Shown here: positions 2,666-37,230 of the stretch, one piece after another | Position numbering within the stretch: position 1 is the stretch's first letter | Layout: every line of letters begins with the position of its first letter | NCBI GenBank assembly: GCA_021776655.1 | Contig: JAJFFK010000011.1 | Location: forward strand, 1 to 61,892 | From: Henriciella sp. | GTDB taxonomy: Bacteria > Pseudomonadota > Alphaproteobacteria > Caulobacterales > Hyphomonadaceae | Direction: 5' to 3' | DNA length: 61,892 bases | Position numbers and translations under genes: made by a program | The notes under the pieces: generated by a model | Databases searched by the model: none | Told to the model about the DNA's origin: nothing | What the model saw: the letters and a program-made list of their open reading frames with translations, nothing else

Positions 2666-2743
2666 GTCTACGCGCCTTTTGAGATCGCATCGTTCGATCA
2701 GGAGAAAAGCCGTTATTAACGTGAATACTCTGGTTTCATAGGG

Positions 2744-2772
2744 TTGACGCTCGCCGCCCGTCCTCATACTAA
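2744..2772 (+). promoter_or_regulatory. Promoter of tRNA-fMet
   Basis: TTGACG (2744-2749), a 17-nt spacer and TACTAA (2767-2772) form a good sigma-70-type promoter. Predicted initiation near 2779 is about 7 nt before the mature tRNA. It supports transcription of this tRNA independently of the rRNA operon. Confidence 0.65.
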
Positions 2773-6609: not shown

Positions 6610-6626
6610 TCATAAACACTTGGCCT

Positions 6627-6653
6627 CCTTCTTGCTTCGCTAAAGCAAGAAGG
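6627..6653 (+). promoter_or_regulatory. Hairpin covering the cas1 ribosome binding site
   Basis: CCTTCTTGCTT (6627-6637) and AAGCAAGAAGG (6643-6653) form a perfect 11-bp stem with a 5-nt loop. The 3' arm contains most of the AGAAGGA Shine-Dalgarno that serves the cas1 GTG at 6664. No T-run follows on either strand, so it is not a simple terminator. A likely effect is reduced translation of cas1-cas2 relative to cas9. Confidence 0.65.
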
Positions 6654-6663
6654 AATAAGACAC

Positions 6664-19073: not shown

Positions 19074-19811
19074 TCAAGTGCTCAACTCAGCGACAAAATC
19101 ATATGTATCACCGCGATAATAGGAACGCGCGATTTCAACTATTCGCCCATCTTCCAAAAATCCGCGTCGTTCGACGAGTAGTCCCGCGGCATTCTCAGTG
19201 GTTTGAAGTAACCCGGCCTGCTCTTCGTTGAACAATATGGCGCGCAGACGTTGCAGTGCGCGGACAGGGCGAAAGCCGGTTTCACCTAGCGCCACATATA
19301 GTGATGAAGTTACGGCATTGATTGATGGGAGACAGAATGCAGGAACAATTGTGTACTCGATGGACATCGGTGAATTGTCAGCGAATCTAAGCCGGTGAAA
19401 GCGATATATATTCATGCCGGGACTCAGCCCAAAATTCATAATTTCCTCTGGTGTGACCTTGCTTACTTTTTTTTCAAGCCACTCGCTGCGCGGCGTAAAA
19501 CCACGCGCCACCATATCTTCGGAAAAGGATGTTAACTGCGAGAAGTTCTTCTCGACACGATTTGAAACGAACGTGCCAGCTCCCTGCCTGCGGGTCAGCA
19601 GACCTTCTTTGACAAGACCTTCAAGGGCTTTGCGAACTGTAATCCGTGATATTGTGAATTCAGCTGCAATATCGCGCTCACCGGGCAGTAGTTCGTCAGG
19701 GAGCAGTTTGTTCTCTTCAATCGCCTTGCGTAGCTTGCCCTGCAATTGCTTGTACAGAGGCTCTCTGGCTGTTTCATCGAGTGGTCCAACGGATTCAGCA
19801 AAGGGTGCCAT
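19074..19811 (-). CDS. Second GntR-family (HutC subfamily) regulator
   Basis: 245-aa paralogue of the regulator at 13366-14136. It has the same architecture and long similar stretches: EPLYKQLQGKLRKAI, ITVRKALEGLVKEGLLTRRQGAGTFV, VEKNFSQLTSFSEDM, RPVRALQRLRAI, SYYRGDTYDFVAEL. It is divergent from the TonB receptor gene at 20099, with inverted repeats between them, so it probably controls uptake of chitin oligomers in the same regulon. The two paralogues may respond to the same sugar phosphate or divide the targets. Confidence 0.85.
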   Translation of the reverse strand: MAPFAESVGPLDETAREPLYKQLQGKLRKAIEENKLLPDELLPGERDIAAEFTISRITVRKALEGLVKEGLLTRRQGAGTFVSNRVEKNFSQLTSFSEDMVARGFTPRSEWLEKKVSKVTPEEIMNFGLSPGMNIYRFHRLRFADNSPMSIEYTIVPAFCLPSINAVTSSLYVALGETGFRPVRALQRLRAILFNEEQAGLLQTTENAAGLLVERRGFLEDGRIVEIARSYYRGDTYDFVAELST

Positions 19812-20098: not shown

Positions 20099-22975
20099 AT
20101 GAAATCTTACAAGGGACTTTTAGTCGGAACAGTGAGTGTGTGTGCTCTCTTTGTTGGCGCTGATGCTTTTGCGCAAACGCAGACAGAAAATGAGACCTCA
20201 GAGCGGCGGCTGGATTCGGTTACAGTGACAGCTCAGAAACGTGAAGAAAATTTGCAGGATGTGCCGATTGCGATAAGTGTCGTTTCCGGGGAGCGTCTTG
20301 CTCAACAATCTGTTGATTCACTGAAAGATATCGGGCAGCTCGTTTCAGGCATCTCGATCCGGGAAAATAATGATCAACGTAATGTCGGGTTTCTGATCAG
20401 AGGTATTGGCTCAAACCAGTCCTTCATTGGTATTGAGCCAAGCGCTGCGGTGAATGTTGATGGTGAGGTTCTGGCCAGGAACTCATCCTTGTTCGGTGAT
20501 ATCGGAGATGTTGAGTCAGTCTCGATCCTGAAAGGACCTCAAGGCACTCTGTTTGGCAAGAACACTGTTGCGGGTGCAATGGTTGTGAGAACGAACAGGC
20601 CATCCCTCGATGGCAATGCAGGTAATTTCAAGCTTACCTTGGCCGAGTCCGGTTCCAGTACAGTGGGAGAGTACAATGTCCATGGCATGTACAATATGGT
20701 CTTGGATGATAAATCTGCTCTCCGCGTCAATTTCTATCAAAAAGACCAGGATGGTTGGGTAGAAAATGTCTTCGAGGGCGGCCCCAATGGCGGCGAGAGC
20801 GATGGCATTGGCGGACGTGTCCAATACATGCGTAAGCTGAATGATAACACGGAATTCTTGTTGCGAGCTGACTATCAGGATGTTGATTTTGGGCCAGGTA
20901 TCAGGGTTTTTATACAGCGTGACGATTTCACGATCGGGTCAAATTTTGGCCAGATACCCCAAGCGGTTATAGATGGCCTGAATCTCTCTCCCGATGCTTT
21001 ACAGAGCTTACTGACGACGAACTTGCATGAGATTTCAAACACACCCTTCGGCGAGTTCAATGATCGTACATCGGCTGCAAATAATCGTGACTATGGTGGA
21101 AGAAATTCATTCGGTACGTCGCTGGAAGTCAACCACACACTGGGGTCTGGCCACGAATTGACGTTTACGTCTCATTATCGCGACACGCACCTCTTCACCA
21201 ATGACTCGCTCATCGGGACAGCGGTTAACGCTTTCCCCCTTAACTTTGCTGGGCCGGTAGACAGCCAGACATTTCAGAATGAATTCCGGGTTGCATCTCC
21301 ACTCGGCGACAAGTTCGATTATGTCGCTGGTGCCTTCTATTTGCACTCGAAGGTGACGCGAAATCAGAAGGTGCTGGTCTGTCAGGATCCTGGTTTTGAA
21401 AACAGCACAATTGACGCCAATTTCAATGTGGTCAATTGTGCTGGTCAGCCCCATACATTCGACAATGTTGCGGCTGCAACGGCGCTGAATGCGAATGGCT
21501 TTGCATTTACCGACACATTCTTCAATCGTGAACTACGGGACAATGATTTGATCACGGATAATGCTGCCATTTTTGGCCAGCTGAATTTCCATGTGACAGA
21601 TCAGTTAACGGCTGTATTTGGTGGTCGCCTCTTGTACGAAAATCAGGACTTCAGCCTTGATGTTCGTGATGATGGTTTGCCAAATATTGATATCAGGCCA
21701 AACGTCTTATGGATCTTTGACGCTGATGGGAATCGGATACCGATTGGCGGGCCGGACTCTGTCGCCGGCGGAAGAATTTTTGTGACTAACCCGTTCTTTG
21801 GGCAAGTTACAGACAATCCCGGGGCAGATTTCGATCAACGTGATCCTTCGGCACCTTTAGTCACGCAGTCCAAGAGTAATAATGATACAGCCTTTACCTA
21901 TAAGGCGGCTTTGCAATTCTCGCCGACAGACGACATCATGCTGTATGGCGGATACTCGACCGGTTACAAAGGCGTGGGTTGGTTTACTGACAGTGATGTC
22001 CGGCAGGACGATCTTGATACCAGATATCCAATTCCGCCGGAGGAATCCAGAAACATTGAATTTGGCCTGCGGTCAGAATGGTTTGATGGAAGATTCCGGT
22101 TCAATGCGACCTATTTTGATACCAAGTTTGAGCACTACCAGGATCGTCTCAGGACACTTGATTTCGATATCTTCCCGGTCGTCAATGGTGGCTTGCAGAA
22201 TATTGGCAATGATCCAACGGCCAGTGGTCAGCCGGTTCGCAAATTTGATATCATTGATGCGGGTACTCTGAATACTGACGGTGTGGATATTGAAGCGATC
22301 ATTGGTGTCACTGATAATCTTACACTTAGCGGTAGCTGGAGCCGTGTGAATGCGCGGTTTGCTGACACCAATGTGCTCATAAATTGCGGTACGGCAACTT
22401 CCAATGGTCAGCCAGCTGATGCATGTACGCCCGTAATCAATTTCGGTGAGTTCTTCGATTTCACATTCCCACGCAGAGGTCAGTTCTTTGAACTTGACGG
22501 AGCCAGACTGGCAAATGCACCGAGAGATACGATAAATGCCGATGCTACTTATGATTTCGATGTCAATTCGTGGAACAGCTATATCCGTTGGAATTATCGC
22601 TACAAGTCTGTTGAGTTTACCAATCACGGTGGCTCTGCGAATAATGATGACAGCACAACAATGCCGGCGATCGGCATTCACAATCTGTTTCTTGGCGTAA
22701 GTTCACCTGACGAGAAATACAGATTTACGGTCTTTGCAAAAAACCTGTTCAATGATCACTACTTCGCCCGCAAAACGAATTTCGGTGATGGTCTGGCAGA
22801 ACGCCTGGTTGGCACATATCCAACAGTTGTGCCTGAACTTGTTGGTGTCGCTCAGGCCTACCCGACTTACGGCGCAGTGCCCGATGGCAGGTTCTTCCGG
22901 CAGCGGCCAGAGCACGGCAATGTGCCGCGTGATTTTGATCGCTACATAGGGGTTAGTTTTGAGATGAGCTTCTAA
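20099..22975 (+). CDS. TonB-dependent outer-membrane receptor, probable chitooligosaccharide transporter
   Basis: 958-aa outer-membrane active transporter. It has a signal peptide (about 1-25, ending ADAFAQ) and a TonB-box-like segment (DSVTVTAQKR). The plug domain contains DVPIAISVVSGE, FLIRGIG and VSILKGPQGTLFGKNTVAGA. A large beta-barrel ends in a terminal aromatic strand (YIGVSFEMSF). Location between a GntR regulator of the nag type and GH20 suggests chitin oligomers as substrate, which is an inference. It probably belongs with the NagP/SusC-independent receptors of alphaproteobacteria. Four genes of an unusual modification/chaperone cassette follow. Confidence 0.93.
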   Translation: MKSYKGLLVGTVSVCALFVGADAFAQTQTENETSERRLDSVTVTAQKREENLQDVPIAISVVSGERLAQQSVDSLKDIGQLVSGISIRENNDQRNVGFLIRGIGSNQSFIGIEPSAAVNVDGEVLARNSSLFGDIGDVESVSILKGPQGTLFGKNTVAGAMVVRTNRPSLDGNAGNFKLTLAESGSSTVGEYNVHGMYNMVLDDKSALRVNFYQKDQDGWVENVFEGGPNGGESDGIGGRVQYMRKLNDNTEFLLRADYQDVDFGPGIRVFIQRDDFTIGSNFGQIPQAVIDGLNLSPDALQSLLTTNLHEISNTPFGEFNDRTSAANNRDYGGRNSFGTSLEVNHTLGSGHELTFTSHYRDTHLFTNDSLIGTAVNAFPLNFAGPVDSQTFQNEFRVASPLGDKFDYVAGAFYLHSKVTRNQKVLVCQDPGFENSTIDANFNVVNCAGQPHTFDNVAAATALNANGFAFTDTFFNRELRDNDLITDNAAIFGQLNFHVTDQLTAVFGGRLLYENQDFSLDVRDDGLPNIDIRPNVLWIFDADGNRIPIGGPDSVAGGRIFVTNPFFGQVTDNPGADFDQRDPSAPLVTQSKSNNDTAFTYKAALQFSPTDDIMLYGGYSTGYKGVGWFTDSDVRQDDLDTRYPIPPEESRNIEFGLRSEWFDGRFRFNATYFDTKFEHYQDRLRTLDFDIFPVVNGGLQNIGNDPTASGQPVRKFDIIDAGTLNTDGVDIEAIIGVTDNLTLSGSWSRVNARFADTNVLINCGTATSNGQPADACTPVINFGEFFDFTFPRRGQFFELDGARLANAPRDTINADATYDFDVNSWNSYIRWNYRYKSVEFTNHGGSANNDDSTTMPAIGIHNLFLGVSSPDEKYRFTVFAKNLFNDHYFARKTNFGDGLAERLVGTYPTVVPELVGVAQAYPTYGAVPDGRFFRQRPEHGNVPRDFDRYIGVSFEMSF

Positions 22976-23019
22976 TCGGTCGGCGTTTGAGTGGTTGAGG
23001 TGTGAGTTCCTGTGGCAAT

Positions 23020-23060
23020 GAGCGGTCAGGTCCGACCATAAAGAGTTGGACTGACCGCTC
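23020..23060 (+). terminator. Hairpin downstream of the TonB receptor gene
   Basis: GAGCGGTCAG (23020-23029) and CTGACCGCTC (23051-23060) are perfect 10-bp arms around a 21-nt loop, whose ends TCC/GGA may extend the stem. The sequence that follows (TTCGATATGG) is only weakly T-rich. It may be a partial terminator that lowers expression of the genes after the abundant receptor. Confidence 0.5.
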
Positions 23061-23193
23061 TTCGATATGGTTTCTGAGTAGGCTGAATGTGTAGCAGGTA
23101 CTGCATATCATCAGTCCGTTCAGATTCTGTAATTGTCTGCCCTATCGTTACTATTCTTGAGCAGGCTAGCTGACATGAACGCTCAGATATTGC

Positions 23194-24912
23194 ATGGTTG
23201 GGAATAGATTGCCGATGGAACCTGGTGTGATGACGAAGCAGATTTCAAGACGTCTGAGCCCCGCACGCGAGAAGCGGTATTTTCAGCGTGCGAAGCTCCT
23301 GAGTTCAACCGACCCATTCTACGCGCTTGATTATGTTCATAAACTTCTGGATGGCGAGGTCTGCACGTCTGAAGCACACCAACTTGAAGCAACACTCTTG
23401 TTGCAGCTGGGTTGTGGTACATTCGCAGCAAAGGCGACTGAAAGAGCACTCAAAGCAGGTGGTGATCCATTGCCGCTGCTCTTGCTACTGCTCAAATGCC
23501 ATTTGTCCGCATATAACAGAAAGCCTGCTGCAATCATTCTTGAACGGTTGCTTGAATTTGGTGCATTGCCGGATCAAGCCAAAGCGGAGATTGCCCATGG
23601 TGCACAGGAGATCCATCAATACGATGTAGCCGAGCGATTGTATCTGGAATTGCTGGAGTCTGATCCGCGAAATTGCAAATATCTGATCAATCTCGGCTAT
23701 GCCTATCAGAAGAATGGCAACATGCAGGAGGCTGAGCGGTGTTATCGCAGCGCAATTGAACAGAAACCCGATTCAGCAAACGCGCTGAGGTTACTGTCAT
23801 CCGTACGCAAGCAAACTTCCGACGATAATTGTCGTAAATTGATCAGCGACGCGATGCCAGATTTAGATAAAGCGTCAGAGGAATATGTTACCGCCGCTTA
23901 TGCGCTGGGTAAAACCTGTGAAGATCTTGGCGAATATGAGAGTGCCTTTGAAAATTTCAAAGCGGGCGCAGACGCGATGCATCCCAAACTGCCATACAGT
24001 ACAAGTGCTGTAAAAAGAACATTTGAGATTACCAAGACCTACTTTGACCACCCGCAGCGTCAGCACGCAGTCTCCAAGTCGTCTGCGGTGCACTCAACGG
24101 ATGAAAGCCTGAAGGTGCAGCCGCGACAAGAGCCCCTCTTTATCCTCGGCATGCCACGTACAGGCAGTACACTGATAGATCGTATTCTATGCAGTCATAG
24201 TGAAGCCACATCAATGGGTGAGCTTGGTTGCTTCAAGGAAGCAATGAAAGTTGTCACCGGATATGGCGGAGGAGAAGGTTTCCATGAGCATTTTTACAGC
24301 ACTGTTGACCGCGAGATTGATCTCCCGAAATTGGGGGCCACATATATAGAAGCTGCCTCGCCGACGGATTTTTCGGGTCGCTTTTTCATCGACAAATACC
24401 CAATGAACTTCATGGACCTCGGCCTCATCGCCGATACTTTGCCGCGTGCGCGATTTATACATACGCTCAGGACCCCCTTGGATACGGTGTTCGCCAATTT
24501 CAAACAGCTTTTTACATTGGGTTTTTATCACTATTCATACTCGATCGCCGAATGTGCAGAATATTACCTTCAATATCAGGAGCTTATGGCATACTGGAAG
24601 CAGCGATTGCCCGGCCGCATTCTCGATGTGCAATACGAAGACCTCGTAAATAATACTGAACCGCAGATCAGGAGAATCTTGGATTTTCTTGACTTGGACT
24701 GGCAGGCGGATTGCCTTGCTTTTTATAATAATAGCAAGCCGGTTGATACGGCCAGTCTGAGCCAGGTGCGTCAGCCGATCTACAAATCAGCGATCGGTCA
24801 TTGGCGACATTATGAGGCATTTCTTTCTGAAGCCATAACCATCTTCAACGCTGCGGGCGTGAATATTGATACAGACATCGCCGGAAACGGCTCCTCGAGG
24901 CATGAGCGATGA
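23194..24912 (+). CDS. TPR-repeat sulfotransferase family protein
   Basis: 572-aa protein. The N-terminal half (about 1-280) is tetratricopeptide-like, for example NLGYAYQKNGNMQEAERCYRSAIEQKPDS. The C-terminal half is a PAPS-dependent sulfotransferase. The 5'-phosphosulfate loop is FILGMPRTGSTLIDRIL (about 316-332), and the 3'-phosphate region is ARFIHTLRTPLDTVFANF. No signal peptide is seen, so it should act in the cytoplasm. TPR-sulfotransferases resembling protein-tyrosine sulfotransferases are widespread in alphaproteobacteria, mostly with unknown substrates. The start is uncertain: in-frame ATGs exist at 23194, 23215 and 23230, without a strong ribosome binding site. The stop overlaps the next ATG by 4 bp. 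Confidence 0.85.
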   Translation: MVGNRLPMEPGVMTKQISRRLSPAREKRYFQRAKLLSSTDPFYALDYVHKLLDGEVCTSEAHQLEATLLLQLGCGTFAAKATERALKAGGDPLPLLLLLLKCHLSAYNRKPAAIILERLLEFGALPDQAKAEIAHGAQEIHQYDVAERLYLELLESDPRNCKYLINLGYAYQKNGNMQEAERCYRSAIEQKPDSANALRLLSSVRKQTSDDNCRKLISDAMPDLDKASEEYVTAAYALGKTCEDLGEYESAFENFKAGADAMHPKLPYSTSAVKRTFEITKTYFDHPQRQHAVSKSSAVHSTDESLKVQPRQEPLFILGMPRTGSTLIDRILCSHSEATSMGELGCFKEAMKVVTGYGGGEGFHEHFYSTVDREIDLPKLGATYIEAASPTDFSGRFFIDKYPMNFMDLGLIADTLPRARFIHTLRTPLDTVFANFKQLFTLGFYHYSYSIAECAEYYLQYQELMAYWKQRLPGRILDVQYEDLVNNTEPQIRRILDFLDLDWQADCLAFYNNSKPVDTASLSQVRQPIYKSAIGHWRHYEAFLSEAITIFNAAGVNIDTDIAGNGSSRHER

Positions 24913-25517
24913 ATTTGCAAACGGATATGCTCATGTTGGGGGAGTTCGACATTGCTGGTCTTGCCGATCAGGTGCGGCTCATTTCCGATCATGACTGGTC
25001 TGAAGACCAGAAACGTCAGGAGATCTTCGAAGCGCATACGCACACGCAAACGATCAAGCTCCTCTTTGATCCTGATTATCGTCATAGTGATCCGACACGG
25101 CATTCTGCATTTGATACATACGAGCTGATGCTTGCGCCGCTGATGGCGCATATCGAGCACAATTACCAAAAGACGATGCGGCAGAGGAAGGTGGTCTCCA
25201 GGAATGGGCCAGGATATTTCATTCGAGTTATCTTGACACGCCTATTGCCGCATAGCGAAATTACGCCGCATGCGGATGATGGGCATTCACTGAAATGCTG
25301 CCATAGAATTCATGTTCCAATTATCACAAACACGGATTGTACTTTCAGGGTGGGTGCATCTGCGCGCCATATGCGAGTTGGTGAAATGTGGGAGATTAAT
25401 AACCGCCGTGTGCACGCCGTGAATAATGATGGCGACGCGGCGCGAGTTCATCTCATCATGGATTATGTGCAACCAGGTGAAAAAGTGTTCGACACGGAAG
25501 GCACGCTGACGGCGTAA
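24909..25517 (+). CDS. Aspartyl/asparaginyl beta-hydroxylase-like dioxygenase
   Basis: 202-aa cytoplasmic Fe(II)/2-oxoglutarate enzyme of the AspH family (PF05118). Signature residues are PHADDGHS with H121 and D123, the RIHVPIITN strand, GEMWEINN, H169 in RRVHAV, and R179 in ARVHLIMDY as the likely 2-oxoglutarate contact. Family members hydroxylate Asp or Asn side chains in peptides. Overlap with the sulfotransferase (ATGA) and closeness to secB indicate one operon. The target is unknown. The short length means that only the catalytic domain is present. Confidence 0.85.
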   Translation: MNLQTDMLMLGEFDIAGLADQVRLISDHDWSEDQKRQEIFEAHTHTQTIKLLFDPDYRHSDPTRHSAFDTYELMLAPLMAHIEHNYQKTMRQRKVVSRNGPGYFIRVILTRLLPHSEITPHADDGHSLKCCHRIHVPIITNTDCTFRVGASARHMRVGEMWEINNRRVHAVNNDGDAARVHLIMDYVQPGEKVFDTEGTLTA

Positions 25518-25591
25518 GATGGGTTAAGGTGCGCAGCGGGTACTCCCGGCTGGCAGTCGTGAAAGAAGTAATTTTCTATTGGAGATATGAG

Positions 25592-26047
25592 ATGACCGAG
25601 GACCAGCAAAAAGCGAGTGAAGCGTTTTCCATCAAGCGGGTATTTGTGAAGGACTTTTCCTTTGAGGCACCGGGTGGCGCAAACACTTTTACCAATCCCT
25701 GGAACCCTGATGTAAATGTAGATGTAGAGGTGGCAGAGGAAACGCTTGCCGAAGATGTCTATGAAGTTGTGCTGACGCTGACAGTTACGGTCAATAACGC
25801 CGATACAACCGCATTCATGATTGAAGTTCTGCAAGGGGGTATCTTTTCTTGCGCGCGCTTTTCACAAGATCAACTGCATCGGATCCTGCACACATACTGC
25901 CCGAATATCCTGTTTCCATATGCGCGTGAGGCAATTGACAGCATGGTTGTGAAGGGCAGCTTCCCGGCCTTGATGATAGAACCGGTTAATTTCGACGCCT
26001 TGTACAATGAACACTTGGGCGATGCAGGGGCCATCCCGGGTGTGTAG
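25592..26047 (+). CDS. secB: SecB-like protein-export chaperone, operon-borne paralogue
   Basis: 151-aa SecB family protein. It matches SecB from SIKRVFVKDFSFEAPGGANTF through NVDVEVAEETLAEDVYEVVLTLTVTV and EVLQGGIFSC to LHTYCPNILFPYAREAIDSMVVKGSFPALMIEPVNFDALY, the typical beta-strand and helix order. SecB tetramers hold outer-membrane precursors unfolded for SecA. The ordinary secB gene is normally elsewhere with housekeeping neighbours, so this copy inside a receptor/modification operon looks specialised. I chose ATG 25592 because GGAG lies 8 nt upstream. A longer frame from 25529 adds a region unlike SecB. Confidence 0.88.
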   Translation: MTEDQQKASEAFSIKRVFVKDFSFEAPGGANTFTNPWNPDVNVDVEVAEETLAEDVYEVVLTLTVTVNNADTTAFMIEVLQGGIFSCARFSQDQLHRILHTYCPNILFPYAREAIDSMVVKGSFPALMIEPVNFDALYNEHLGDAGAIPGV

Positions 26048-26110
26048 CGTAAATCCAGACCCTTGGAACATACAGGACAGACGCGCCTGCCAGGCAGGAG
26101 GCAAACGGGT

Positions 26111-27043
26111 TTGAGCGTACGGACAAGAAAATATATCAAGCGGCTGTCGGCGCAATTTTCCCCCGAGGAAATACGCGATTATTTTGCCAATTCGGTATTC
26201 ATCGTATCCGCGCCGCGCTCTGGAAGTACGCTGCTCTACACTCTGCTTAGTCATAGCCCTGATGTCTGGACAATACGCGGGGAAAGCCATGGCATCTATG
26301 CCCAGTTCCCACATCTTTCAGGTGAAAATGAACGTCTCGACTCTGGCCAGCTTGATGCGACGCACGCGGATGAGACGACAGCCAGGCAGATGAGAGTGCT
26401 ATATCTTGCTCTCTTGAAGAACATTGATGATCACAGTTTTTATGACAAAATTCAAACCGGGACAGCGCGAAACATTGTCTTTCTTGAAAAGACACCAAGG
26501 AACTCGCTGAATATAAAGTTCCTGACAGCTGTCTTTCCAAAAGCCCGATTTATTTTTCTCAATCGCGACCCGCGTGAAAATATCAGCAGCCTTATTGAGG
26601 GATGGGAAACCGGAGCCAGGACAGGCCAGTTTGTTACATTTCGCAATCTTCCTGAATGGCCGCTTGGACATTGGTGTTTTATATTGCCGCCTGGATGGCA
26701 GAGTATGCGAGATAAATCTCTGGCCGAGATCGCCGCATTTCAGTGGCGGGCCTGTAATGAGATCATTCTCGATGACCTTTCGAGAATGGCGGAAGATCAG
26801 TGGTTATCTGTTTCCTATTCTGACCTGATCAGTGATCCAAGGACGCAATTGTCACGGCTTTGCGAATTTTGCCATGCCGAAATGGGTACATACCTGCAAG
26901 ATCGGAGCACAGACAATCTGGCTCTGTCTTCCTCAACAATCACGCCGCCGAAAAAAGATAAATGGAAAAGGCATGAGCATGAAATACGTCGGGAACTACC
27001 GGGACTTCAACAGATAATTGAGCGACTTGGCGCGCTTTACTGA
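26111..27043 (+). CDS. Sulfotransferase family protein
   Basis: 310-aa PAPS-dependent sulfotransferase without TPRs. The 5'-phosphosulfate loop FIVSAPRSGSTLLYTLL is near the N-terminus, and the 3'-phosphate site is ARFIFLNRDPRENISS. It is unlike the sulfotransferase at 23194 outside these motifs. The likely start is TTG at 26111, with a full AGGAGG 9 nt upstream; another TTG at 26063 lacks this. It lies 63 bp after secB and 97 bp before the hexosaminidase. Substrate unknown: protein, sugar and lipid are all possible for this family. Confidence 0.82.
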   Translation: MSVRTRKYIKRLSAQFSPEEIRDYFANSVFIVSAPRSGSTLLYTLLSHSPDVWTIRGESHGIYAQFPHLSGENERLDSGQLDATHADETTARQMRVLYLALLKNIDDHSFYDKIQTGTARNIVFLEKTPRNSLNIKFLTAVFPKARFIFLNRDPRENISSLIEGWETGARTGQFVTFRNLPEWPLGHWCFILPPGWQSMRDKSLAEIAAFQWRACNEIILDDLSRMAEDQWLSVSYSDLISDPRTQLSRLCEFCHAEMGTYLQDRSTDNLALSSSTITPPKKDKWKRHEHEIRRELPGLQQIIERLGALY

Positions 27044-27140
27044 AGGCTAACCGCGCCAGGTTTGGGTCTGACAATGCGGGATTACCCATTCAGACTTTCG
27101 TTCAGGCCAATCAAGTTCAAAACAGGAAAGAAAAGAGCAG

Positions 27141-29792
27141 ATGAGACAGAATAGATTAATCTCAACCGCGTTAGTGATGTGTCTTACCGGGTTCATGGTT
27201 TTCGCTTGTGCGCCCAACCGGGATACAAGTGAGGCTGTGGCCATAGAGCTGGATCAGGCGCAATTGGATCGTTTTGCCGATACGCTTATCGTCAAATATA
27301 CCGTTCTCAATAATCGTGTGAAAGACGTATGCGGCGATTCTGGTCGGTGCTTTTCGGTGCAGATCGATCTGTCTGTCAGAGAGGATTTTGCGGCCACAGG
27401 CTGGCAGATGTATTTCAGCCAGCTATTTCCCGTACACAAGGTCGAGAGTGAGGAATTTGAGGTTGAAACCATAAATGGTGATCTCAATCGGATTGTTCCT
27501 AACGGTAATTTTGACGGGTTTCGAGCAAGCGAAGCAAAAACGATCATCATTTATCTCGCTGGCACACACGGCAATGAGTTCGAAGCAATGCCAAATTACT
27601 ACCTTGTCGGTGACAGCCTGGAGGCGCGCATTGTCGAGAGTACGGTTCCGATCATTGATCCTGAAACCGGGTTGGAGATCATGCCGCATCTGACACCCTT
27701 TACGGATGCTGAACGACAATTCCGGATTACTGATAATGAGAAAATCGTATGGGCAAGGAGCAGCGTCCTTTTTACAGCCAATGAAGATATGTACGCGGAT
27801 CAGTCTTCCCTCAAGACGGCGATTATTCCAACCCCGTACTTTATCGACATTGATGATGGCGATAGAGTTATAGATCTCGCATCTGGGGTTGATTTTCAGC
27901 TAGTCGGTATCGATCGGCAGGAGTTGGATGTTGCTATTGACCGGCTTGGTCAATTTGGCATTACCGAGAGCAGTTCAGGAACGCAAATACGGGTCAAAGT
28001 GGAACCTGACAGCTCTCGCCTGGCTGAATCATATGAGTTGCAGATCGGTTCTAATGAAATCGAAATAACCGCTGGCGATAGTGCTGGCGCGTTTTACGCC
28101 CTGCAGACACTGGCCAACCTCGTTACTCTTGGCGACACATCTGTACCGGTTATGACGGTTCACGACCAACCCAGATATCAATATCGAGGTATGCATCTCG
28201 ACGTCGCCCGGAATTTTCATTCCAAAGAGCTGGTCCTGAAATTGCTCGATCAGATGGCGGCATACAAATTCAACAAGTTTCATTTGGATTTGGGCAATGA
28301 TGAGGGTTGGCGCTTGCAGATACCTGGTCTGCCCGAATTGACAGAGATAGGTTCAAAACGATGCCATGATCCTGCGGAATCACGTTGTCTACTGCCACAA
28401 TTGGGCAGCGGACCGTTTGCCGACACGACCGTAAATGGCTATTTCACTGTCGAGGACTATCAGGATATTCTGGTGGCTGCGGCCGCCAGACATATTCAGG
28501 TTATTCCTTCGTTCGACATGCCGGGTCACTCGCGGTCCTCTGTCAAATCGATGGAGGCACGCTATCGCCGTTTCATGGCTGAGGGTGAGGAGGCTGAAGC
28601 CTTACGCTATCTTCTCAGCGATCCTGATGATGCCAGTGTGTATAGCAGTATTCAGAATTATACCGACAATACGATCAATGTTTGTATGGAATCTTCTTAC
28701 ACATTTATCGAAAAAGTCATTTCTGAATTGCAGGTGATGCACAATCAGGCCGGTCAGCCGCTGACACGATACCATATCGGTGCAGATGAAACAGCAGGTG
28801 CCTGGAGGGATTCGCCCGCGTGCAGGCGTTTCCTCTCAGACAATGATCAGGGGATCGATGGAGTCGAAAAGCTTGGGGCATATTTTATCGAACGCGTCGC
28901 CGGGATGTTGTCCGATAAAGGTATAGAACCAGCAGGCTGGGGTGATGGAATGGGGCACACCGATCCCGCAAACATGCCACCGATTGTACAGTCAAATGCA
29001 TGGGGCCGCCTGATTGATCCGGCGCATCGGGGTGCCCACAAACACATCAATCACGGATGGGACGTGGTCAACTCAATACCGGACGCGACCTATTTCGATT
29101 TTCCGTATGAGGCGGATCCGAAAGAGCGCGGGTACTATTGGGCATCACGCAATTTGAATACGCGCAAAGTGTTCGAATTCATGCCGGACAATCTGCCCGC
29201 ACATGCTGAATTCTGGAGTGATTCAGAAGGTTTGGACCTATCGCTGAATGACGCGCTGCAAACCGGCGAGAGCGGTGAAATTATCCATCGTCCAATTGAG
29301 GAAGGCAAAGGCTTCGCAGGCGTGCAAGGCCATATCTGGTCGGAAACACTGCGTACCGATGAGCAAGTGGAATACATGGTTTTCCCGAGGCTGCTGGCCT
29401 TGGCCGAAAGGGCTTGGCACGTCGGTGACTGGGAAGTTCCCTATGATCATGAAGGTGCGAGTTATAGTCCGGAAACCAGTCATTTCAGCAGCGAAATGAG
29501 ACTAGGCCGCGACGCTGAATGGAACCGATTTGCTAACGTCCTCGAGGGCAGGGAGCTGGCCAAACTGGATCTCGCTGGCATCAATTATCGCATCCCAACA
29601 GTCGGCGCAAAAATCATGAATGGCAAACTGTTCTGCAATATTATTTTTCCGGGAATGAAGATTGAATATCGACGGGGTGAAGGCGAATGGCTGGCTTATG
29701 ATGCACCCGTTGATATCGGTAGCGAGACCGTGGAAGTCAGAGCCAGATCGGCTGACGGGATACGCATAGGTCGATCCCTGATCGTGCAGTAA
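27141..29792 (+). CDS. Beta-N-acetylhexosaminidase, GH20 lipoprotein
   Basis: 883-aa chitobiase-type enzyme that removes terminal GlcNAc from chitin oligomers. A lipoprotein signal ends at the lipobox VFAC (Cys23). Then come an N-terminal CHB_HEX carbohydrate-binding domain, a GH20b domain and the catalytic TIM barrel, with YRGMHLDVARNFH at its start and the catalytic pair D549-E550 in HIGADETAG. WSETLRTDEQVEYMVFPRLLALAERAW is the conserved end of the barrel, followed by a C-terminal chitobiase domain. It should act in the periplasm or on the cell surface and supply GlcNAc to NagE. Confidence 0.93.
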   Translation: MRQNRLISTALVMCLTGFMVFACAPNRDTSEAVAIELDQAQLDRFADTLIVKYTVLNNRVKDVCGDSGRCFSVQIDLSVREDFAATGWQMYFSQLFPVHKVESEEFEVETINGDLNRIVPNGNFDGFRASEAKTIIIYLAGTHGNEFEAMPNYYLVGDSLEARIVESTVPIIDPETGLEIMPHLTPFTDAERQFRITDNEKIVWARSSVLFTANEDMYADQSSLKTAIIPTPYFIDIDDGDRVIDLASGVDFQLVGIDRQELDVAIDRLGQFGITESSSGTQIRVKVEPDSSRLAESYELQIGSNEIEITAGDSAGAFYALQTLANLVTLGDTSVPVMTVHDQPRYQYRGMHLDVARNFHSKELVLKLLDQMAAYKFNKFHLDLGNDEGWRLQIPGLPELTEIGSKRCHDPAESRCLLPQLGSGPFADTTVNGYFTVEDYQDILVAAAARHIQVIPSFDMPGHSRSSVKSMEARYRRFMAEGEEAEALRYLLSDPDDASVYSSIQNYTDNTINVCMESSYTFIEKVISELQVMHNQAGQPLTRYHIGADETAGAWRDSPACRRFLSDNDQGIDGVEKLGAYFIERVAGMLSDKGIEPAGWGDGMGHTDPANMPPIVQSNAWGRLIDPAHRGAHKHINHGWDVVNSIPDATYFDFPYEADPKERGYYWASRNLNTRKVFEFMPDNLPAHAEFWSDSEGLDLSLNDALQTGESGEIIHRPIEEGKGFAGVQGHIWSETLRTDEQVEYMVFPRLLALAERAWHVGDWEVPYDHEGASYSPETSHFSSEMRLGRDAEWNRFANVLEGRELAKLDLAGINYRIPTVGAKIMNGKLFCNIIFPGMKIEYRRGEGEWLAYDAPVDIGSETVEVRARSADGIRIGRSLIVQ

Positions 29793-30183
29793 ACGGACAG
29801 TATTTGCACGATCTAATCGTGCCAGATAAAGGCGAGTTCTCGGCCCGGTTGTCGAGCCACCCCCTCCGGTGTCCTGACGGGTTTCATTGCCAATGATCTG
29901 AGGCGGTTGGTGATAATGACTCTTGGGTTACCATATCGCTTCATGGCTTTCCTTTGACAATTCCCATGGCAAAGCCAGAGACCCCTGCGCGACAACGAAA
30001 AGACCAGAAGAAGGGAGGGCTTGAAACAAAGGCGCTTGCAGCGCGCCAAACACACTGCTTAACTGAAACCAAGATGAGCCAAACCTCCTGCAAGTCAGGC
30101 TGACAACTGTCAGCAAATAATCTGACGACGGGCAAGGATTTGAGCTACAGAAATGCTGGCAAAGCTAATACGGGGATAAGCCG
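29793..30183. other. Intergenic region with a palindrome before LysR
   Basis: 391 bp without a supported gene. GCTGACA-AC-TGTCAGC (30099-30114) is a 7-bp-arm palindrome about 70 bp before the LysR start, and TCTGACG follows at about 30120. It could be a LysR autoregulatory site. Short frames here have no recognisable features. Confidence 0.45.
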
Positions 30184-31086
30184 ATGCGAGTGCGTCATAT
30201 TGAAGTTTTTTATTCGGTGTATCGGCATAAATCGATCAGTGCGGCGGCGCGAACCCTGAATATATCCCAGCCAGCACTGAGCAAGGCATTGCGACATGCA
30301 GAAGACCAGTTTGGGTTTCCTTTGTTCACACGTACGGGACGAGGTCTCAGTCCAACGAATGAAGCGCATCGTTTGTACGAAGATGTGAAGCGCGTCTTTG
30401 AAGATATTGCGCATGTCAAACGGACAACACTTGATCTGCAACAGTCCGGAGGCGGGCGGCTCAAAGTATCTACAGTTACCGGTCTCAGCTATGAAATTCT
30501 GCCGCGCACCATCGCTCGGGTACGTAAATTACGCCCTGATACAAGCTTCGAAATTCAGACGCTTCATTACGGTGACCTTATATTGTCTTTGCGTGCTTTT
30601 GAGACCGATATTGGTCTTGTGTTTGAGGCCCCAATTCATGATGGGCTTGCCTGCATCCAGGCAGGTGAAGCAGAGTTCGCCTGTGTATATGCTGAGAACC
30701 AGTTGAATCATGCCAATGATCGAATTCAAATCGAAGAATTGGAAGGCCAGGACTTCATTACGCTCAATCCTGAAGGCCCATTAGGAGGTAAGCTCAATAG
30801 TGCATTGGAGGGGGCTGCCATAACGATAGATCCAGTGGTGGTCGCCGAATCCTGCTTTGTCGCTAAAAGCCTCGTCATGTGCGGCCTTGGAACCACGATC
30901 GTGGATGAATTTACGGCCAGGTCGCCCGGCTATCTGGGGCTGGCCAGCCGCAAACTGGCTCCGCCCGTTCCTATAAATATCAATGCGCTCTACCTTGAGG
31001 GGAGACCATTGTCTGGAATTGGCAGGCAATTCCTTGCCGCACTGGAATCAGAATTACAGGAATGGCAATCAATCAAGCGTGACTGA
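30184..31086 (+). CDS. LysR-family transcriptional regulator
   Basis: 300-aa LysR regulator. The N-terminal winged helix-turn-helix is clear (IEVFYSVYRHKSISAAARTLNISQPALSKALRHAEDQFGFPLFTR), followed by a periplasmic-binding-like effector domain. It is in the same orientation as the CapA, TonB receptor and M14 genes that follow. A LysR-type T-N11-A motif with dyad symmetry lies before the TonB receptor (32646-32660), so it probably regulates that locus. The effector is unknown. Confidence 0.9.
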   Translation: MRVRHIEVFYSVYRHKSISAAARTLNISQPALSKALRHAEDQFGFPLFTRTGRGLSPTNEAHRLYEDVKRVFEDIAHVKRTTLDLQQSGGGRLKVSTVTGLSYEILPRTIARVRKLRPDTSFEIQTLHYGDLILSLRAFETDIGLVFEAPIHDGLACIQAGEAEFACVYAENQLNHANDRIQIEELEGQDFITLNPEGPLGGKLNSALEGAAITIDPVVVAESCFVAKSLVMCGLGTTIVDEFTARSPGYLGLASRKLAPPVPININALYLEGRPLSGIGRQFLAALESELQEWQSIKRD

Positions 31087-31276
31087 ATCAATCTTATGCC
31101 TTGTGCGGCGGCGTCCCCGGGATGAAGTATGTATCGACATTCCAGGGCTTGGGTTGTGAACGGGTGCAATTTGCCAAGTGATAAGTGCTTGCCAGAGCAA
31201 CTTCGAAGGGTCATCAGGGTCTATTGAAATCTTGTGCATGATATTTCAAGTCGGCAAATAATGGAGGAAAACCCAT

Positions 31277-32518
31277 ATGAATCAGCGACGAATAGTCTTC
31301 ACTCTGGTCAGCGTTGCCTTATGCAGCTTGGTCTCAGCTTGCACAAATGCCTTGGCGGAGGTGGCAGAATCCGACGGTCCAGTAACAATACTTGCCGCCG
31401 GTGATGTTGAGTGGAGTCGGCGTGTCCGAGCCCCAGAATACTATGCAGGCAGTGAGGATATTGGATCTATATTCCGCGATGATGGTTGGCGCAGATTACC
31501 TTTCGTTGCAAGTGAAGAGAGCCGCTCCTTTATCGAGAGTGAATATGGCCGAGCCCCTGAAACGGCTGAATCGCATCACCTCACTGCATTACAGTTTGGT
31601 CTCGAATTTGATGATGAGCGTGAGCGGGATCGCTATCCATTTGCGAAAGTCGCAGATACATTGCGGGCTGCCGATATTGCATTTCTGAATCTGGAAACGC
31701 CGCTTTCAGAGAATGGTCGCCTCAGTGGGGCTTTTCGTACACCGCCAGCTTTCGCCAAGGCGCTTTCATGGGCTGGTGTCGATCTTGTCTCAACGGCAAA
31801 TAATCATGCCTTCGATGCCGAAGGTGAAGGCATATTGGACACGATCACCGCACTGACGCAAGCACATGTGCGCCATGTTGGAACAGGGCGAAACCTAGCC
31901 GAGGCGACAACCCCGGAAATCTTCAATGTGAAGGGCGTGCGCGTCGCATTTCTGGCTTATACTTACGGGGTCAACCCAACGGTGACACCACTTGGCTTCG
32001 CCACGGAAGCGCGATCCGGGGCCGCGCCGCTCGATCCTTTCCTCATACGGGAGAATATAGAGCAGGCACGCGGCGACGCAGATATTGTTATCCTCTCCCT
32101 GCATTGGGGGCTGGAAAACGAGACAGAGATCCACCCGGCAGCAATCGAATTTGCGCATGACCTGATTGATGCGGGGGCTGATGTCATTATTGGTCATCAT
32201 CCGCATGTGCCGCGCGGCGTTGAGGCATATGGTGATGGATTGATTGTCTATTCTCTCGGCAATTTCATTTTCGGCCACAATCATGACTATTGGGCGGACA
32301 ATTTTATTGTCGAAATGACTGTCGGCAAGACGGGTTTGTTATCGGCGCAGATACGTCCTGTTGCTGGCAGTGGTCAAAGTCTTTTTCAACCCTATTTGCT
32401 GGAGGGGCAAAACGCTCTTTCAGTGCTGGAATTGATCCAGGAACGTTCGGCAGTCTTGGGGACTGAAGTCAAAATAGTCGGCAATGCGGGCATTATATCA
32501 CTCAACAAGCCTGAGTAA
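31277..32518 (+). CDS. CapA-family (poly-gamma-glutamate capsule-type) metallophosphatase-fold lipoprotein
   Basis: 413-aa predicted lipoprotein (signal peptide, lipobox LVSAC near residue 22) with the CapA/PgsA fold. Family motifs are ILAAGDVEW at the start of the domain, FLNLETPLS, VSTANNHAFDAEGEGILDT, VILSLHWG, DVIIGHHPHVPRGVEAYGDGLIVYSLGNFIF. In Bacillus, CapA helps poly-gamma-glutamate synthesis or export, but homologues are also found near TonB receptors and peptidases in proteobacteria. With no CapB or CapC nearby, a role in catabolism or polymer sensing is more likely than capsule formation. GGAGGA precedes the start. Confidence 0.87.
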   Translation: MNQRRIVFTLVSVALCSLVSACTNALAEVAESDGPVTILAAGDVEWSRRVRAPEYYAGSEDIGSIFRDDGWRRLPFVASEESRSFIESEYGRAPETAESHHLTALQFGLEFDDERERDRYPFAKVADTLRAADIAFLNLETPLSENGRLSGAFRTPPAFAKALSWAGVDLVSTANNHAFDAEGEGILDTITALTQAHVRHVGTGRNLAEATTPEIFNVKGVRVAFLAYTYGVNPTVTPLGFATEARSGAAPLDPFLIRENIEQARGDADIVILSLHWGLENETEIHPAAIEFAHDLIDAGADVIIGHHPHVPRGVEAYGDGLIVYSLGNFIFGHNHDYWADNFIVEMTVGKTGLLSAQIRPVAGSGQSLFQPYLLEGQNALSVLELIQERSAVLGTEVKIVGNAGIISLNKPE

Positions 32519-32645
32519 GTTCGAGTAAATTTTTCAAAGCCAGCTTTTGGCAAGGGTTACTTTCCCCTCGATCGCGCTGTTATTCTTAATTGTGTCGCGC
32601 TTTTGTCACTATTTTTGTCCGCTGAGGCAGGAATTACCCTTAAGT

Positions 32646-32660
32646 ATAACTATTGGTTAT
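32646..32660. promoter_or_regulatory. LysR-type binding motif upstream of the TonB receptor
   Basis: ATAAC-TATTG-GTTAT is a perfect 5-bp inverted repeat containing T-N11-A, the classical LysR motif, about 110 bp before the receptor start. The adjacent lysR gene makes this a likely target. The remaining 32519-32768 contains no gene. Confidence 0.5.
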
Positions 32661-32768
32661 GGGGCTAGGCTTTATCGGAAATTGTCGCTTTCGTGTCCGA
32701 AAGTAAACTTCACGTAATGGCCGCTCTTTTTGGCTGTGTCGTGAGAATTCACCGTGGAAGGAAGATCA

Positions 32769-35700
32769 ATGCCGAATATTACAAAAATTAGGAAACAGAG
32801 CCAGATCAAGAAATGGCTGCTGGCCACAGCTGTCTTGCCGGGCATTTTTTCGGGTGCAGCTGCATTTGCTCAAGCGCAAACTGATACAGATGAAACGCTT
32901 ACTCAAGACGTCGTCATCGTAACAGGTACCCACGTTAAAGGGGCTAGTGTAACCGATACTTTGCCCGTTACGCTCGTTTCCAAGAGCGATATTGATGCAC
33001 TTGGCAGTTTCGATGGTGACAACCTCATTCGCTCGCTGCCTGGTCAGGGCGAAGTTGATTTTCGTGATGACAATAACAACACGGTAAACAATTCACGCGG
33101 TGATATTTCATCGATTAACCTGCGCTCCATCGGGCCTGGCAATACATTGGTGCTTCTTAACGGACGCCGCGTAGTCAACCATCCTGGAACACAGACGAAA
33201 AACCTCGTTCCAGCCACGACAGTAAACGTAAATGCTCTACCTATTGCCGGGATCGCCCGTGTAGAAGTCCTGAATGATGGTGCTTCGGCTTTATATGGTT
33301 CAGATGCTGTTGCGGGTGTGTTCAACACAATTTTGGATACGAACTTTGAAGGCTTTTCAGCCTCCTTGCGGGCGAGTAAGGCCGAGAGCACGGGTTTGAA
33401 TGAGCAGCAGGTTACAATCAAAGCTGGCAAGTCGTTCAACGAGGGGCGCACAAACCTTTCTTTTGCAGGCAGTTTTGCTTTGCGCAACGGACTCAACTCA
33501 AATGAGCTTGCTTTGTCAGCAAACTCGGACCAGCGCGGTTTTCTGGTCGGGACAACTTTTGAGGGTGATACCTCTTTTGACAATCGCCATACCAGAACAG
33601 CCTGGGGCCAGTTCACACTGAACACAAGCAGTGCGACACGGGTTGCTCAGAACGGCGTGAATCTGACAACATCCAGCGGCAGATTCCATATCCAGCCGGA
33701 CACATTTTCTGGCTGCCTGGGGACTACGGAAACTGATCTGGCGACGCCAGGTATTTGTATCGATGGCAGCTCGCTTGACCGCGACTTGCGCCACAATCGC
33801 GGCGCGGACCGCTCGCTGATTTCTGACAGAGACAGGGTCAATGCCTTTGTCTTCCTCAATCATGAGCTTACTGACAGCATCGATGTTTACGGTGAGCTTG
33901 GGTATTATCGGGCTGAAACAGATGCCACGATTGAAGCCATCACCCCGATCTCCAGTGGCGACATCGTTGTGCCGGCAAACAATTATTGGAACCCGTTTGG
34001 TCCGGTTAATTTCTCCGATGGAACTTTAAACCCCAATCGTCTGCCTGGTCTGACCAATGTGCCGATTGAAGGATTGCCAGTGTTTGTTGATGGCGCTCGC
34101 TATCGTCTGACTGAGCTTGGCCGCCGGAATGTGAATGTGGTCAATACGACATTCCGTTCTCTTTTGGGTGCCCGTGGTGAGTTTGGCGAAACAGGTTGGG
34201 ATTGGGACAGTGCTGCGCTCTATTCACGTGCCAGAACAACGGATGTTACTGACAATCGGGTCTCATCAACCTTGTTTGCTCAGGCCCTCGATAATGAAAC
34301 GCCGGACGCATTCAACGTTTTCAACGGTGCAGATCCGAATAATCCCAACTCACTGGATAGCACCACCAATCCGCAGAGTGTCATCGATACATTTCTGATC
34401 GATATTGAGCGTCAAAGCACAACCGAGTTGGCTCTGATTGATTTCAAAGTATCGAACGGCGATATATTTGAACTTCCAGGTGGCTCTCTTGGTATCGCAC
34501 TGGGTGTTGAGGCACGGTATGAATCCTATGATGAGGACCGTGATGACCGCCTTGATGGCACCATCAGCTTTACCAATCCCGTAACCGGCGACTTTACTGC
34601 CAGTGACGCCATGGGCTCGTCGCCGACATTTGACTCTAGCGGATCACGTGAAGTCTATTCAGCGTTTGGTGAGCTTCTGGTTCCGGTCATTGGTGAAGAT
34701 CAGAACATTCCTTTTGTACGTAGCTTGAGCGCGCAGCTCGCGGTACGTATTGAAGAGTTTTCTGATATTGGGTCCAGCGGACTAAAGCCACGTATAGCAG
34801 GTAACTGGGAAGTCTTTGACTGGCTTCAGGGCCGCGCGTCCTGGTCGGAAGGCTTCAGAGCTCCGAACTTGCAGCAAATCAATGAATTGGGTGTCTCCCG
34901 TTCGAATACGCGTCAGGATAATATCTTCTGTGAAGCGGGCGTACGAAATGGCACATTTGCTAATTTTGCGGCTTGTGACGGGTTTACGGAATCGCGTGAG
35001 GAACAGCGTCAAGGTAACCCGGATTTGACTCCTGAAGAGGACGAAAACCTTACATTTGGTGTCGTCCTTGACCCGGTCAGCATGACCGGCGACCTTGGTT
35101 TCCTTAATGGCTTTACCGCCACGGTTGACTGGTGGAAAATCGATCAGACAGATGTTGTCGGTATCTTTGGAGGTAGCAACCACGTCAATCTGGACTACGC
35201 GTTACGTGTTGCCGGTTCATCAAACCCAGGTGTTGTGCGCGCTGCTCCAACCGTCGATCAGGTCGCCTTCTTTGCCGGAACCGGAATTGATGCGGTGGGT
35301 GATATCATTTCCATTCAGGACACTTACCTCAACCTGTTGCCGCGTACGATCAAAGGCGTCGATTACGCTATATATTACCGGCTTGATGACACGGCGGTTG
35401 GCGATTTCAATTTCAAGGTCAATGTTGCGCGTATGAAGCGGTTTGATATCGAGCCGTCAGAAAGGGATCTGATAATTACTGATGCGCTTGCAGCAGGTGC
35501 GATTGATCCATCGGTTACGGTCGCAAATTCTGGCAGCATTATTGAGCGGAATGGAACGCCGAAATATCGTGGCACGACAACGGTAGCCTGGACCCACCCT
35601 AGTGGATTTGGTGCCGGTGGACTGGCCAGATATGTTGGCAAATTCATTGACACTGGTGCGGGCCTTGATTCGAATGGCGATCCACATGTGATCAAGAAAT

Positions 35701-35894: not shown

Positions 35895-35945
35895 TCCTTA
35901 TGGACGATTGTCACCACAAAGAATGTTGCGGTGAATTTGGGAAAA

Positions 35946-35969
35946 GGGGGCGGTTTCGCCCCCTTTTTT
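35946..35969 (+). terminator. Strong terminator between the receptor and the first M14 gene
   Basis: GGGGGCG-GTTT-CGCCCCC followed by TTTTTT is a textbook Rho-independent terminator. It ends only 14 nt before the next start codon, so the M14 genes must depend on read-through from the receptor gene or on a promoter within it. Confidence 0.9.
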
Positions 35970-35983
35970 CGTGAGGAAATCTG

Positions 35984-37207: not shown

Positions 37208-37230
37208 AATAGAACCACAACAGGGGAGCG

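What the first reader, a model, noticed from the sequence alone, without database searches (positions are those of the whole stretch)
23194..27043. Sulfotransferase / Asp-hydroxylase / SecB / sulfotransferase cassette in a chitin-uptake operon
Between a TonB receptor and a GH20 lipoprotein lie four same-strand genes: TPR-sulfotransferase, AspH-type hydroxylase (4-bp overlap), a second-type SecB and another sulfotransferase. A SecB copy next to two kinds of side-chain-modifying enzyme suggests that an exported protein is held unfolded in the cytoplasm, hydroxylated and sulfated, then sent to Sec. The neighbouring receptor or hexosaminidase are the obvious candidates. Enzyme families and order are seen; the substrate and the joint function are inferred. 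An alternative is sulfation of a sugar or lipid, with SecB serving the receptor only.
Basis: partly seen in the sequence, partly recalled or inferred. Interest (0 to 1): 0.85.

Follow-up and report, generated by a model that had tools for sequence, protein, structure and literature searches.

The report
SecB-coupled receptor-modification operon
Next to its chitin-fragment receptor this bacterium carries a gene set that pairs a spare protein-export chaperone with enzymes that hydroxylate and sulfate side chains, which suggests that an outer-membrane protein is chemically finished inside the cell before it is exported.

Summary
TPR-sulfotransferase, AspH-type hydroxylase, SecB and a second sulfotransferase lie between a TonB receptor (TBDT) and a GH20 gene in a GlcNAc locus. 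AspH and SecB are neighbours in 11 loci (window, Robiginitomaculum, Marinicaulis, Emcibacter, Asticcacaulis, Woeseiaceae order); 7 keep the whole order TPR-ST, AspH, SecB, ST2, GH20. All 11 genomes have exactly two SecBs; the cassette SecBs are one clade of gammaproteobacterial type. The sister AspH clade is one-chain fusions, sulfotransferase-AspH with a SEC-C or TPR tail; SEC-C is the SecA motif that docks on SecB (recalled). TBDTs lie in 31 of 44 AspH loci against 1 of 20 control stretches. Two other kinds of extra SecB abut flavin halogenases or GT41 glycosyltransferases. Best reading: SecB2 holds a preprotein, probably the TBDT, while the enzymes hydroxylate and sulfate it before Sec export. 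Substrate and chemistry are inferred. Ten literature searches listed no paper on the cassette.

The parts
20099..22975 (+). TonB-dependent receptor TBDT1 (958 aa), most likely substrate and client
   Evidence: PF00593/PF07715; its close subfamily (56% identity and above) tends to travel with the cassette
22976..23193 (+). 218-nt gap with strong predicted hairpin, possible attenuator
23194..24912 (+). TPR-sulfotransferase (572 aa)
   Evidence: PF13469 152.5 bits and TPR families; nearest solved sulfotransferases CurM (E 2.2e-07) and protein-tyrosine sulfotransferase 2 (E 2.4e-06), weak
24909..25517 (+). AspH-family 2OG-Fe(II) hydroxylase (202 aa), HxD...H...R residues invariant
   Evidence: PF05118 59.1 bits; H121, D123, H169, R179 invariant in alignments of 22 and 69 rows, which overlap; model pLDDT 92.7 with the fold of AspH and proline hydroxylases
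25592..26047 (+). SecB2, extra SecB of gammaproteobacterial type (151 aa)
   Evidence: PF02556 171.8 bits; second SecB of the genome on C15; trees; acidic positions matching E. coli D20, E24, E77 kept
26063..27043 (+). second sulfotransferase ST2 (326 aa, TTG start as listed)
   Evidence: PF13469 103.1 bits; present in 7 of the 11 SecB-adjacent loci
27141..29792 (+). GH20 beta-hexosaminidase, lipoprotein-like start read by eye
   Evidence: PF00728 286.1 bits, CHB_HEX domains; follows the cassette in 8 of the 11 SecB-adjacent loci, and lies nearby on the other strand in L015 and L018
11190..19811 (.). GlcNAc catabolic neighbourhood: amidohydrolase, SIS protein, GntR, PTS EIIA-HPr-EI, EIICB, second GntR-like gene (19074-19811)
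   Evidence: the GntR label at 19074 is by eye, not from a family search

Best explanation
The cassette is a pre-export modification station. SecB2 binds the unfolded preprotein of an outer-membrane protein, most likely the neighbouring TBDT, and keeps it soluble. The AspH enzyme hydroxylates Asp/Asn-type side chains and the sulfotransferases add sulfate from PAPS, either to the new hydroxyl or to other residues such as Tyr. SecB2 then hands the chain to SecA. Shown: gene content, order, conservation, duplicated SecB, fusions, kept residues, an APS kinase for PAPS. Inferred: substrate, chemistry, hand-over.
For: The 11 AspHs with SecB next door form one group of the 80-domain tree (89/86, one change). 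Exactly two SecBs in each of these 11 genomes, against 0 or 1 in the 10 other AspH genomes and 1 each in G331 and G558. The sister clade (93/81) is sulfotransferase-AspH fusions: all 9 of L022-L030 carry SEC-C (8 by pattern; L024 by Pfam), and of 120 listed homologues (422 found) 82 have PF02810, 32 have TPRs instead and 6 neither. Hydroxylase and sulfotransferase share one open frame in a second way too (L082, L083: ST2-AspH). TBDT in 31 of 44 AspH loci of 17 kb or more, against 1 of 20 control stretches; sulfotransferase 34 of 44 (30 of 40 without the fusions) against 1 of 20. Close TBDT1 relatives share a contig length with a listed AspH relative in 10 of 22 clusters, against 1 of 97 other listed TBDTs; of 299 genomes of the order, the 2 with a TBDT1 match at E 1e-150 or better are the 2 with a cassette AspH over 300 bits. 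Extra SecBs of other lineages lie directly beside a flavin halogenase (G246, G849) or TPR-GT41 (G274, G178). PAPS can be made: APS kinase, 232.8 bits.
Against: No modified residue, binding or substrate was shown. SecB neighbours AspH in a single clade (8 of 44 long loci). The next AspH relative (L062) sits with ST2 among IMPDH, RsmB/F and GuaA genes, with neither SecB nor TBDT. None of the nine SEC-C fusions has a TBDT on the stretch held (four of these are over 17 kb), and two of their nine genomes show no SecB. 13 of 44 long loci lack a TBDT. The TBDTs involved are diverse and I saw no common motif at their C-terminal ends. L126 lacks ST2. The three Asticcacaulis SecBs have Q for E24. The extra SecBs of G026, G158 and G282 are not next to such enzymes, and that of G224 is tandem with another SecB. 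The AspH fold is as close to free-amino-acid hydroxylases as to AspH.
Confidence: 0.5

Rival explanations
1. Two separate jobs: SecB2 only helps export of the abundant receptor and GH20, while AspH and the sulfotransferases modify a glycan, lipid or small molecule linked to chitin use.
For: ST2 has weak likeness to the nodulation protein NoeE (29.4 bits against a cut-off of 500) and CurM; AspH fold ties with proline hydroxylases and PF05118 also holds lipid and amino-acid hydroxylases (recalled); Asticcacaulis cassettes lie by fucosidase (Pfam on L015) and GH20 genes.
Against: SEC-C on the sulfotransferase-AspH fusions ties the enzymes themselves to a SecA-type docking motif; halogenase- and GT41-linked SecBs repeat the pairing; GH20 is present in only 8 of 44 AspH loci but TBDTs in 31 of 44.
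Confidence: 0.27
2. The enzymes act co-translationally or on ribosome-bound chains; SEC-C and SecB2 are ribosome- or nascent-chain-docking devices and the substrates are broad.
For: SEC-C occurs in proteins other than SecA (PMC6032435, passages); two SEC-C-fusion genomes show no SecB; L062 has no exported-protein gene among the four neighbours scanned.
Against: The pairing of one TBDT subfamily with the cassette points to a specific client.
Confidence: 0.1
3. Ribosomal-peptide or siderophore-like pathway: the cassette makes a modified ligand that the TBDT takes up, as in methanobactin clusters, which hold a TBDT and a sulfotransferase.
For: PMC3621798 on methanobactin clusters uses both terms (search listing and start of abstract; cluster content recalled).
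Against: Little room for a precursor gene inside the cassette: in 9 relatives the stop-to-stop frames overlap or lie at most 74 bases apart (true starts may lie further in). Short ORFs exist in the window's gaps and were not searched elsewhere. No peptide-maturation gene among the nine genes scanned from 20099 to 35894. GH20 and GlcNAc genes point to a glycan ligand.
Confidence: 0.05
4. SecB2 is a folding chaperone of the modifying enzymes themselves, not of an exported protein, as SecB-like chaperones serve antitoxins in TAC modules.
For: SecB paralogues have been captured by non-export systems (PMC6377645 and PMC5105189, abstract starts; PMC4257090, passages).
Against: SecB2 keeps the acidic positions of the SecA site. 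I did not look for a chaperone-dependence tag on the enzymes.
Confidence: 0.08

Closest known systems
HMW1C/EtpC-type cytoplasmic glycosylation of exported adhesins
   Same: A cytoplasmic enzyme encoded with its exported client modifies the client before Sec export (PMC8151025 and PMC3983070, passages)
   Different: Here hydroxylase and sulfotransferases, a TonB receptor as likely client, and a SecB of its own; PMC8151025 lists chaperone involvement as an open question
Toxin-antitoxin-chaperone (TAC) modules with SecB-like chaperones
   Same: A SecB paralogue captured by an operon with a special task (PMC4257090, passages)
   Different: No toxin or antitoxin family among the neighbours scanned; SecB2 stays close to export-type SecB
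Vertebrate AspH (aspartyl/asparaginyl beta-hydroxylase)
   Different: 14% identity; HxD where human AspH has HxG (the latter recalled); no EGF-type substrate known here; TPRs on another chain or fused at the C end
Protein-tyrosine sulfotransferase (TPST; bacterial RaxST by function)
   Same: Sulfotransferase domain with a weak match to TPST2 (E 2.4e-06)
   Different: N-terminal TPR domain, family PF13469; tyrosine specificity untested
Chitin/GlcNAc-type TBDT loci
   Same: TBDT, GH20, PTS, GntR and GlcNAc genes together
   Different: The four-gene modification cassette between TBDT and GH20

Membership tests
SecB export chaperone (PF02556) | Family score over cut-off | tested here: met
   171.8 bits against 26; E. 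coli SecB match E 1.9e-43
SecB export chaperone (PF02556) | Acidic SecA-docking positions (E. coli D20, E24, E77; numbering worked out, role recalled) | tested here: met
   Kept in window SecB2; E24 is Q in the 3 Asticcacaulis copies
SecB export chaperone (PF02556) | Binds preproteins and SecA | not testable with these tools
   Needs binding assays
TAC module | Toxin and antitoxin genes beside the SecB | tested here: not met
   Neighbours by Pfam are TBDT, sulfotransferases, AspH, GH20
AspH-type hydroxylase (PF05118) | Family score over cut-off and double-stranded beta-helix fold | tested here: met
AspH-type hydroxylase (PF05118) | Hydroxylates Asp/Asn in a protein | not testable with these tools
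   Fold does not separate protein from amino-acid hydroxylases
TPST (tyrosylprotein sulfotransferase) | Tyrosine-sulfating activity and its catalytic residues | not tested
   Only weak sequence likeness
HMW1C-type pre-export modification system | Modifying enzyme encoded beside its exported client | tested here: inconclusive
   TBDT and GH20 adjacent and conserved; client not proven
HMW1C-type pre-export modification system | GT41 glycosyltransferase | tested here: not met
   No GT41 among the nine genes scanned from 20099 to 35894; so it may work like it but is not a member
RiPP cluster such as methanobactin | Precursor peptide gene in the cluster | tested here: inconclusive
   Frames overlap or lie at most 74 bases apart in 9 relatives; short ORFs in the window's gaps not searched elsewhere

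The most novel reading that the evidence does not exclude
Bacteria have repeatedly recruited a dedicated SecB paralogue to present unfolded outer-membrane preproteins to cytoplasmic side-chain-modifying enzymes before Sec export. It happened at least three times: with AspH plus sulfotransferases, with a flavin halogenase plus DUF6445, and with TPR-GT41. In the AspH branch this yields hydroxylated and sulfated TonB receptors, perhaps with sulfate on a new beta-hydroxyl, and in a sister branch the chaperone link is built into the enzyme as a SEC-C tail.
Probability: 0.35. Interest if true: 0.92.

Novelty: new variant of a known kind. Interest (0 to 1): 0.8.

Why it matters
[quoted passage not shown] PMC4257090 (passages) suggests that extra SecBs may serve the export of specific substrates. 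This cassette names a chaperone, enzymes and a client that can be tested together. If right, TonB receptors carry unsuspected modifications, and the orphan hydroxylases, sulfotransferases and halogenases found beside TonB receptors gain a common explanation.

Tried and rejected
Only SecB of the genome: rejected. Chance neighbours: rejected. TAC module: no TA family among the neighbours scanned. RiPP precursor: none conserved was found in the gaps, but the test is partial. Common motif in cassette-linked TBDTs: C-terminal ends compared by eye, none found; TBDT1 orthologues show long invariant loops but no site can be named. Fold searches of the fusion listed only hydroxylase-domain matches, as one domain fills the list, so its sulfotransferase half rests on PF03567 for a stand-alone homologue of the same type (L076, 54.3 bits), on PF00685 just under cut-off for L022 and over it in the precomputed domains of two homologues (P0166, P0178), and on motifs read by eye. 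The motif scan by regular expression was too strict to use (TPR-ST 27 of 31, ST2 7 of 17, STn 8 of 16, AspH 62 of 80). A gene that my script labelled 'MFS?' is an alpha-L-fucosidase (L015). Papers: 10 searches, seen as listings, none naming the cassette; the library lacks most subscription journals. Five papers were looked at as passages only; the large SecB survey PMC4361572 gave nothing on cassettes in the passages seen.
Full report
WHAT IS THERE. Between a TonB receptor (TBDT1, 20099-22975) and a GH20 lipoprotein-like gene (27141-29792) lie TPR-sulfotransferase, AspH-type hydroxylase, SecB and a second sulfotransferase (ST2), all on the + strand and all above Pfam cut-offs. The SecB most likely starts at the ATG 25592. 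The region is a GlcNAc locus. The own genome (2.97 Mb, 47 contigs) has one more SecB on C15, PF13469 matches at seven places, the window's two included, six over cut-off, a second PF05118 protein and an APS kinase for PAPS.

CONSERVATION. A genome-contig scan with the AspH gave 19 loci. Annotated with profiles built here, six of them repeat the window order TPR-ST, AspH, SecB, ST2, GH20: L012 (Robiginitomaculum), L013, L014, L016 (Woeseiaceae, Gammaproteobacteria), L017 (Emcibacter) and L021 (Marinicaulis). Three Asticcacaulis loci have STn-AspH-SecB; L015 and L018 also have TPR-ST, and on the other strand a different TBDT, a fucosidase (Pfam on L015) and GH20. The other ten are nine fusions and L020. 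A further locus, L126 (G692), has TBDT, TPR-ST, AspH, SecB and GH20 without ST2. On an 80-domain AspH tree the 11 SecB-adjacent domains form one group (89/86, one change), with L062 as next relative.

SECB2 IS AN EXTRA COPY. Of 289 genomes of the class 257 have a SecB; the table shows more than one in 8 (G000, G026, G158, G178, G224, G246, G274, G282). The nine cassette genomes, G692 and the own genome have exactly two each; the 10 other AspH genomes have none (2) or one (8). The 11 cassette SecBs are one clade (99/97) nested among gammaproteobacterial SecBs, away from the alphaproteobacterial housekeeping copies. Gene order and the SecB tree together suggest that the operon moved between classes as a unit (inference). 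Of the window's own genus, G331, G350 and G549 have only other AspH types, and none of the 20 genus members listed has a TBDT1 orthologue.

FUSIONS. The sister AspH clade (93/81, just short of the tool's mark for strong support) has 15 members in which a sulfotransferase-type domain (STn) and AspH share one chain. All nine of L022-L030 have SEC-C at the C end (eight by pattern; L024 at 22.4 bits against 20.4); of the other six, L020 has TPRs by Pfam and the rest were not scanned. L020 and L028 are cut by contig ends. In the protein database 82 of 120 listed homologues (422 found) have PF02810, 32 have TPRs, 6 neither. SEC-C is the zinc motif at the SecA tail that binds SecB (recalled; PMC6032435 passages say it is found in preprotein translocases). 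So where no SecB gene lies beside AspH, the enzyme itself may carry the SecB-type dock. In another branch ST2 and AspH share one open frame (L082, L083). Two kinds of fusion between a sulfotransferase and this hydroxylase argue that both work on one substrate.

THE CLIENT. TBDTs lie in 31 of 44 AspH loci of at least 17 kb but in 1 of 20 stretches taken elsewhere from 19 of these genomes; sulfotransferases in 34 of 44 (30 of 40 without fusions) against 1 of 20; GH20 in 8 of 44; halogenases in 6 of 44 (Fisher p 1.2e-06 for TBDT and 3.6e-08 for sulfotransferase). Loci are not independent, some come from one genome, I chose which AspH hits to fetch (best scores first), and the profiles were trained on these loci, so the contrast is somewhat inflated. 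TBDT1 has 22 listed relatives at 56-77% identity, then a drop to 41%; 10 of the 22 have a longest contig of the same length as a listed AspH relative, against 1 of 97 other listed TBDTs. Equal length is a proxy for the same contig; the lists are capped (120 of 138 and 120 of 5497); P0250, P0257 and P0258 on long contigs have no partner. In 299 genomes of the order, TBDT1 matches at E 1e-150 or better occur in G000 and G527 only, the two with a cassette AspH over 300 bits (only two candidates were scored per genome). The TBDT is thus the best candidate client, but the receptors are diverse and no shared site was found.

THE WIDER PATTERN. I looked at extra SecBs of the seven other genomes, taking the lower-scoring copies, and both in G282. 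In G246 the extra SecB directly follows DUF6445 and a flavin halogenase (PF04820, 470.5 bits); in G849 of the same genus the related SecB again abuts a halogenase. In G274 and G178 it abuts a TPR-GT41 protein. In G026 and G158 it is by a NUDIX gene and, in G026, a symporter; in G224 it is tandem with another SecB (other neighbours not Pfam-scanned); in G282 by Rho and NAGPA-like genes; a third, partial SecB of G178 is near an MltA gene. So three of six lineages by genus, window included, pair an extra SecB with a putative protein-modifying enzyme, and the three SecBs are not one clade (the GT41 ones are long branches of unsure place).

MECHANISM. The best-supported story: SecB2 keeps the receptor precursor unfolded, AspH hydroxylates, sulfotransferases sulfate, and the chain goes to SecA. 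The TPRs and the SEC-C tail would be client or chaperone docks. PMC8151025 (passages) describes cytoplasmic glycosylation of exported adhesins and asks how clients are handed between chaperones, enzymes and Sec. Against the story stand the SecB-free loci (L062 and 36 of the 44 long loci), SEC-C fusions without a TBDT on the stretch held and, in two of nine genomes, without a SecB, and a hydroxylase fold that does not tell proteins from amino acids.

VERDICT. Real, conserved and undescribed as far as 10 searches of an open-access library show. It works like cytoplasmic pre-export modification systems; it is not a member of the HMW1C family or of TAC modules.

Noticed in passing
L164 6421-9163, L173 574-2569: Extra SecB directly behind a flavin halogenase (and DUF6445 in L164), a second kind of modifier-SecB pair
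   Followed up: partly
L163 6776-9275, L166 9454-11774: Extra SecB next to TPR-GT41 (OGT/SPINDLY-like) genes
   Followed up: partly
L125, L127-L135: Gammaproteobacterial islands of AspH with one to four flavin halogenases (10 of 10), TBDT (7 of 10) and a sulfotransferase or STn-AspH fusion (9 of 10; L135 none); AspH has a Cys-rich tail in L125 and L127 (by eye)
   Followed up: partly
L013 14637-16583, L014 14659-16647, L016 14590-16548, L126 13185-15107: ASPIC/UnbV FG-GAP protein gene right after GH20 in Woeseiaceae-type cassettes (Pfam on L016; others by profile)
   Followed up: no
window 3373-7587: Cas9-like (HNH, RuvC) and Cas1 genes, a probable type II CRISPR locus
   Followed up: no
window 1403-2767: 454-aa protein with a 2OG-Fe(II) oxygenase match just under cut-off (26.4 against 27 bits)
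   Followed up: no
window 31277-39999: PGA_cap protein, second TBDT and two M14 carboxypeptidases in a row downstream of a LysR gene
   Followed up: no
window 22976-23193: Strong predicted hairpin between TBDT1 and the cassette, possibly lowering cassette expression relative to the receptor
   Followed up: partly
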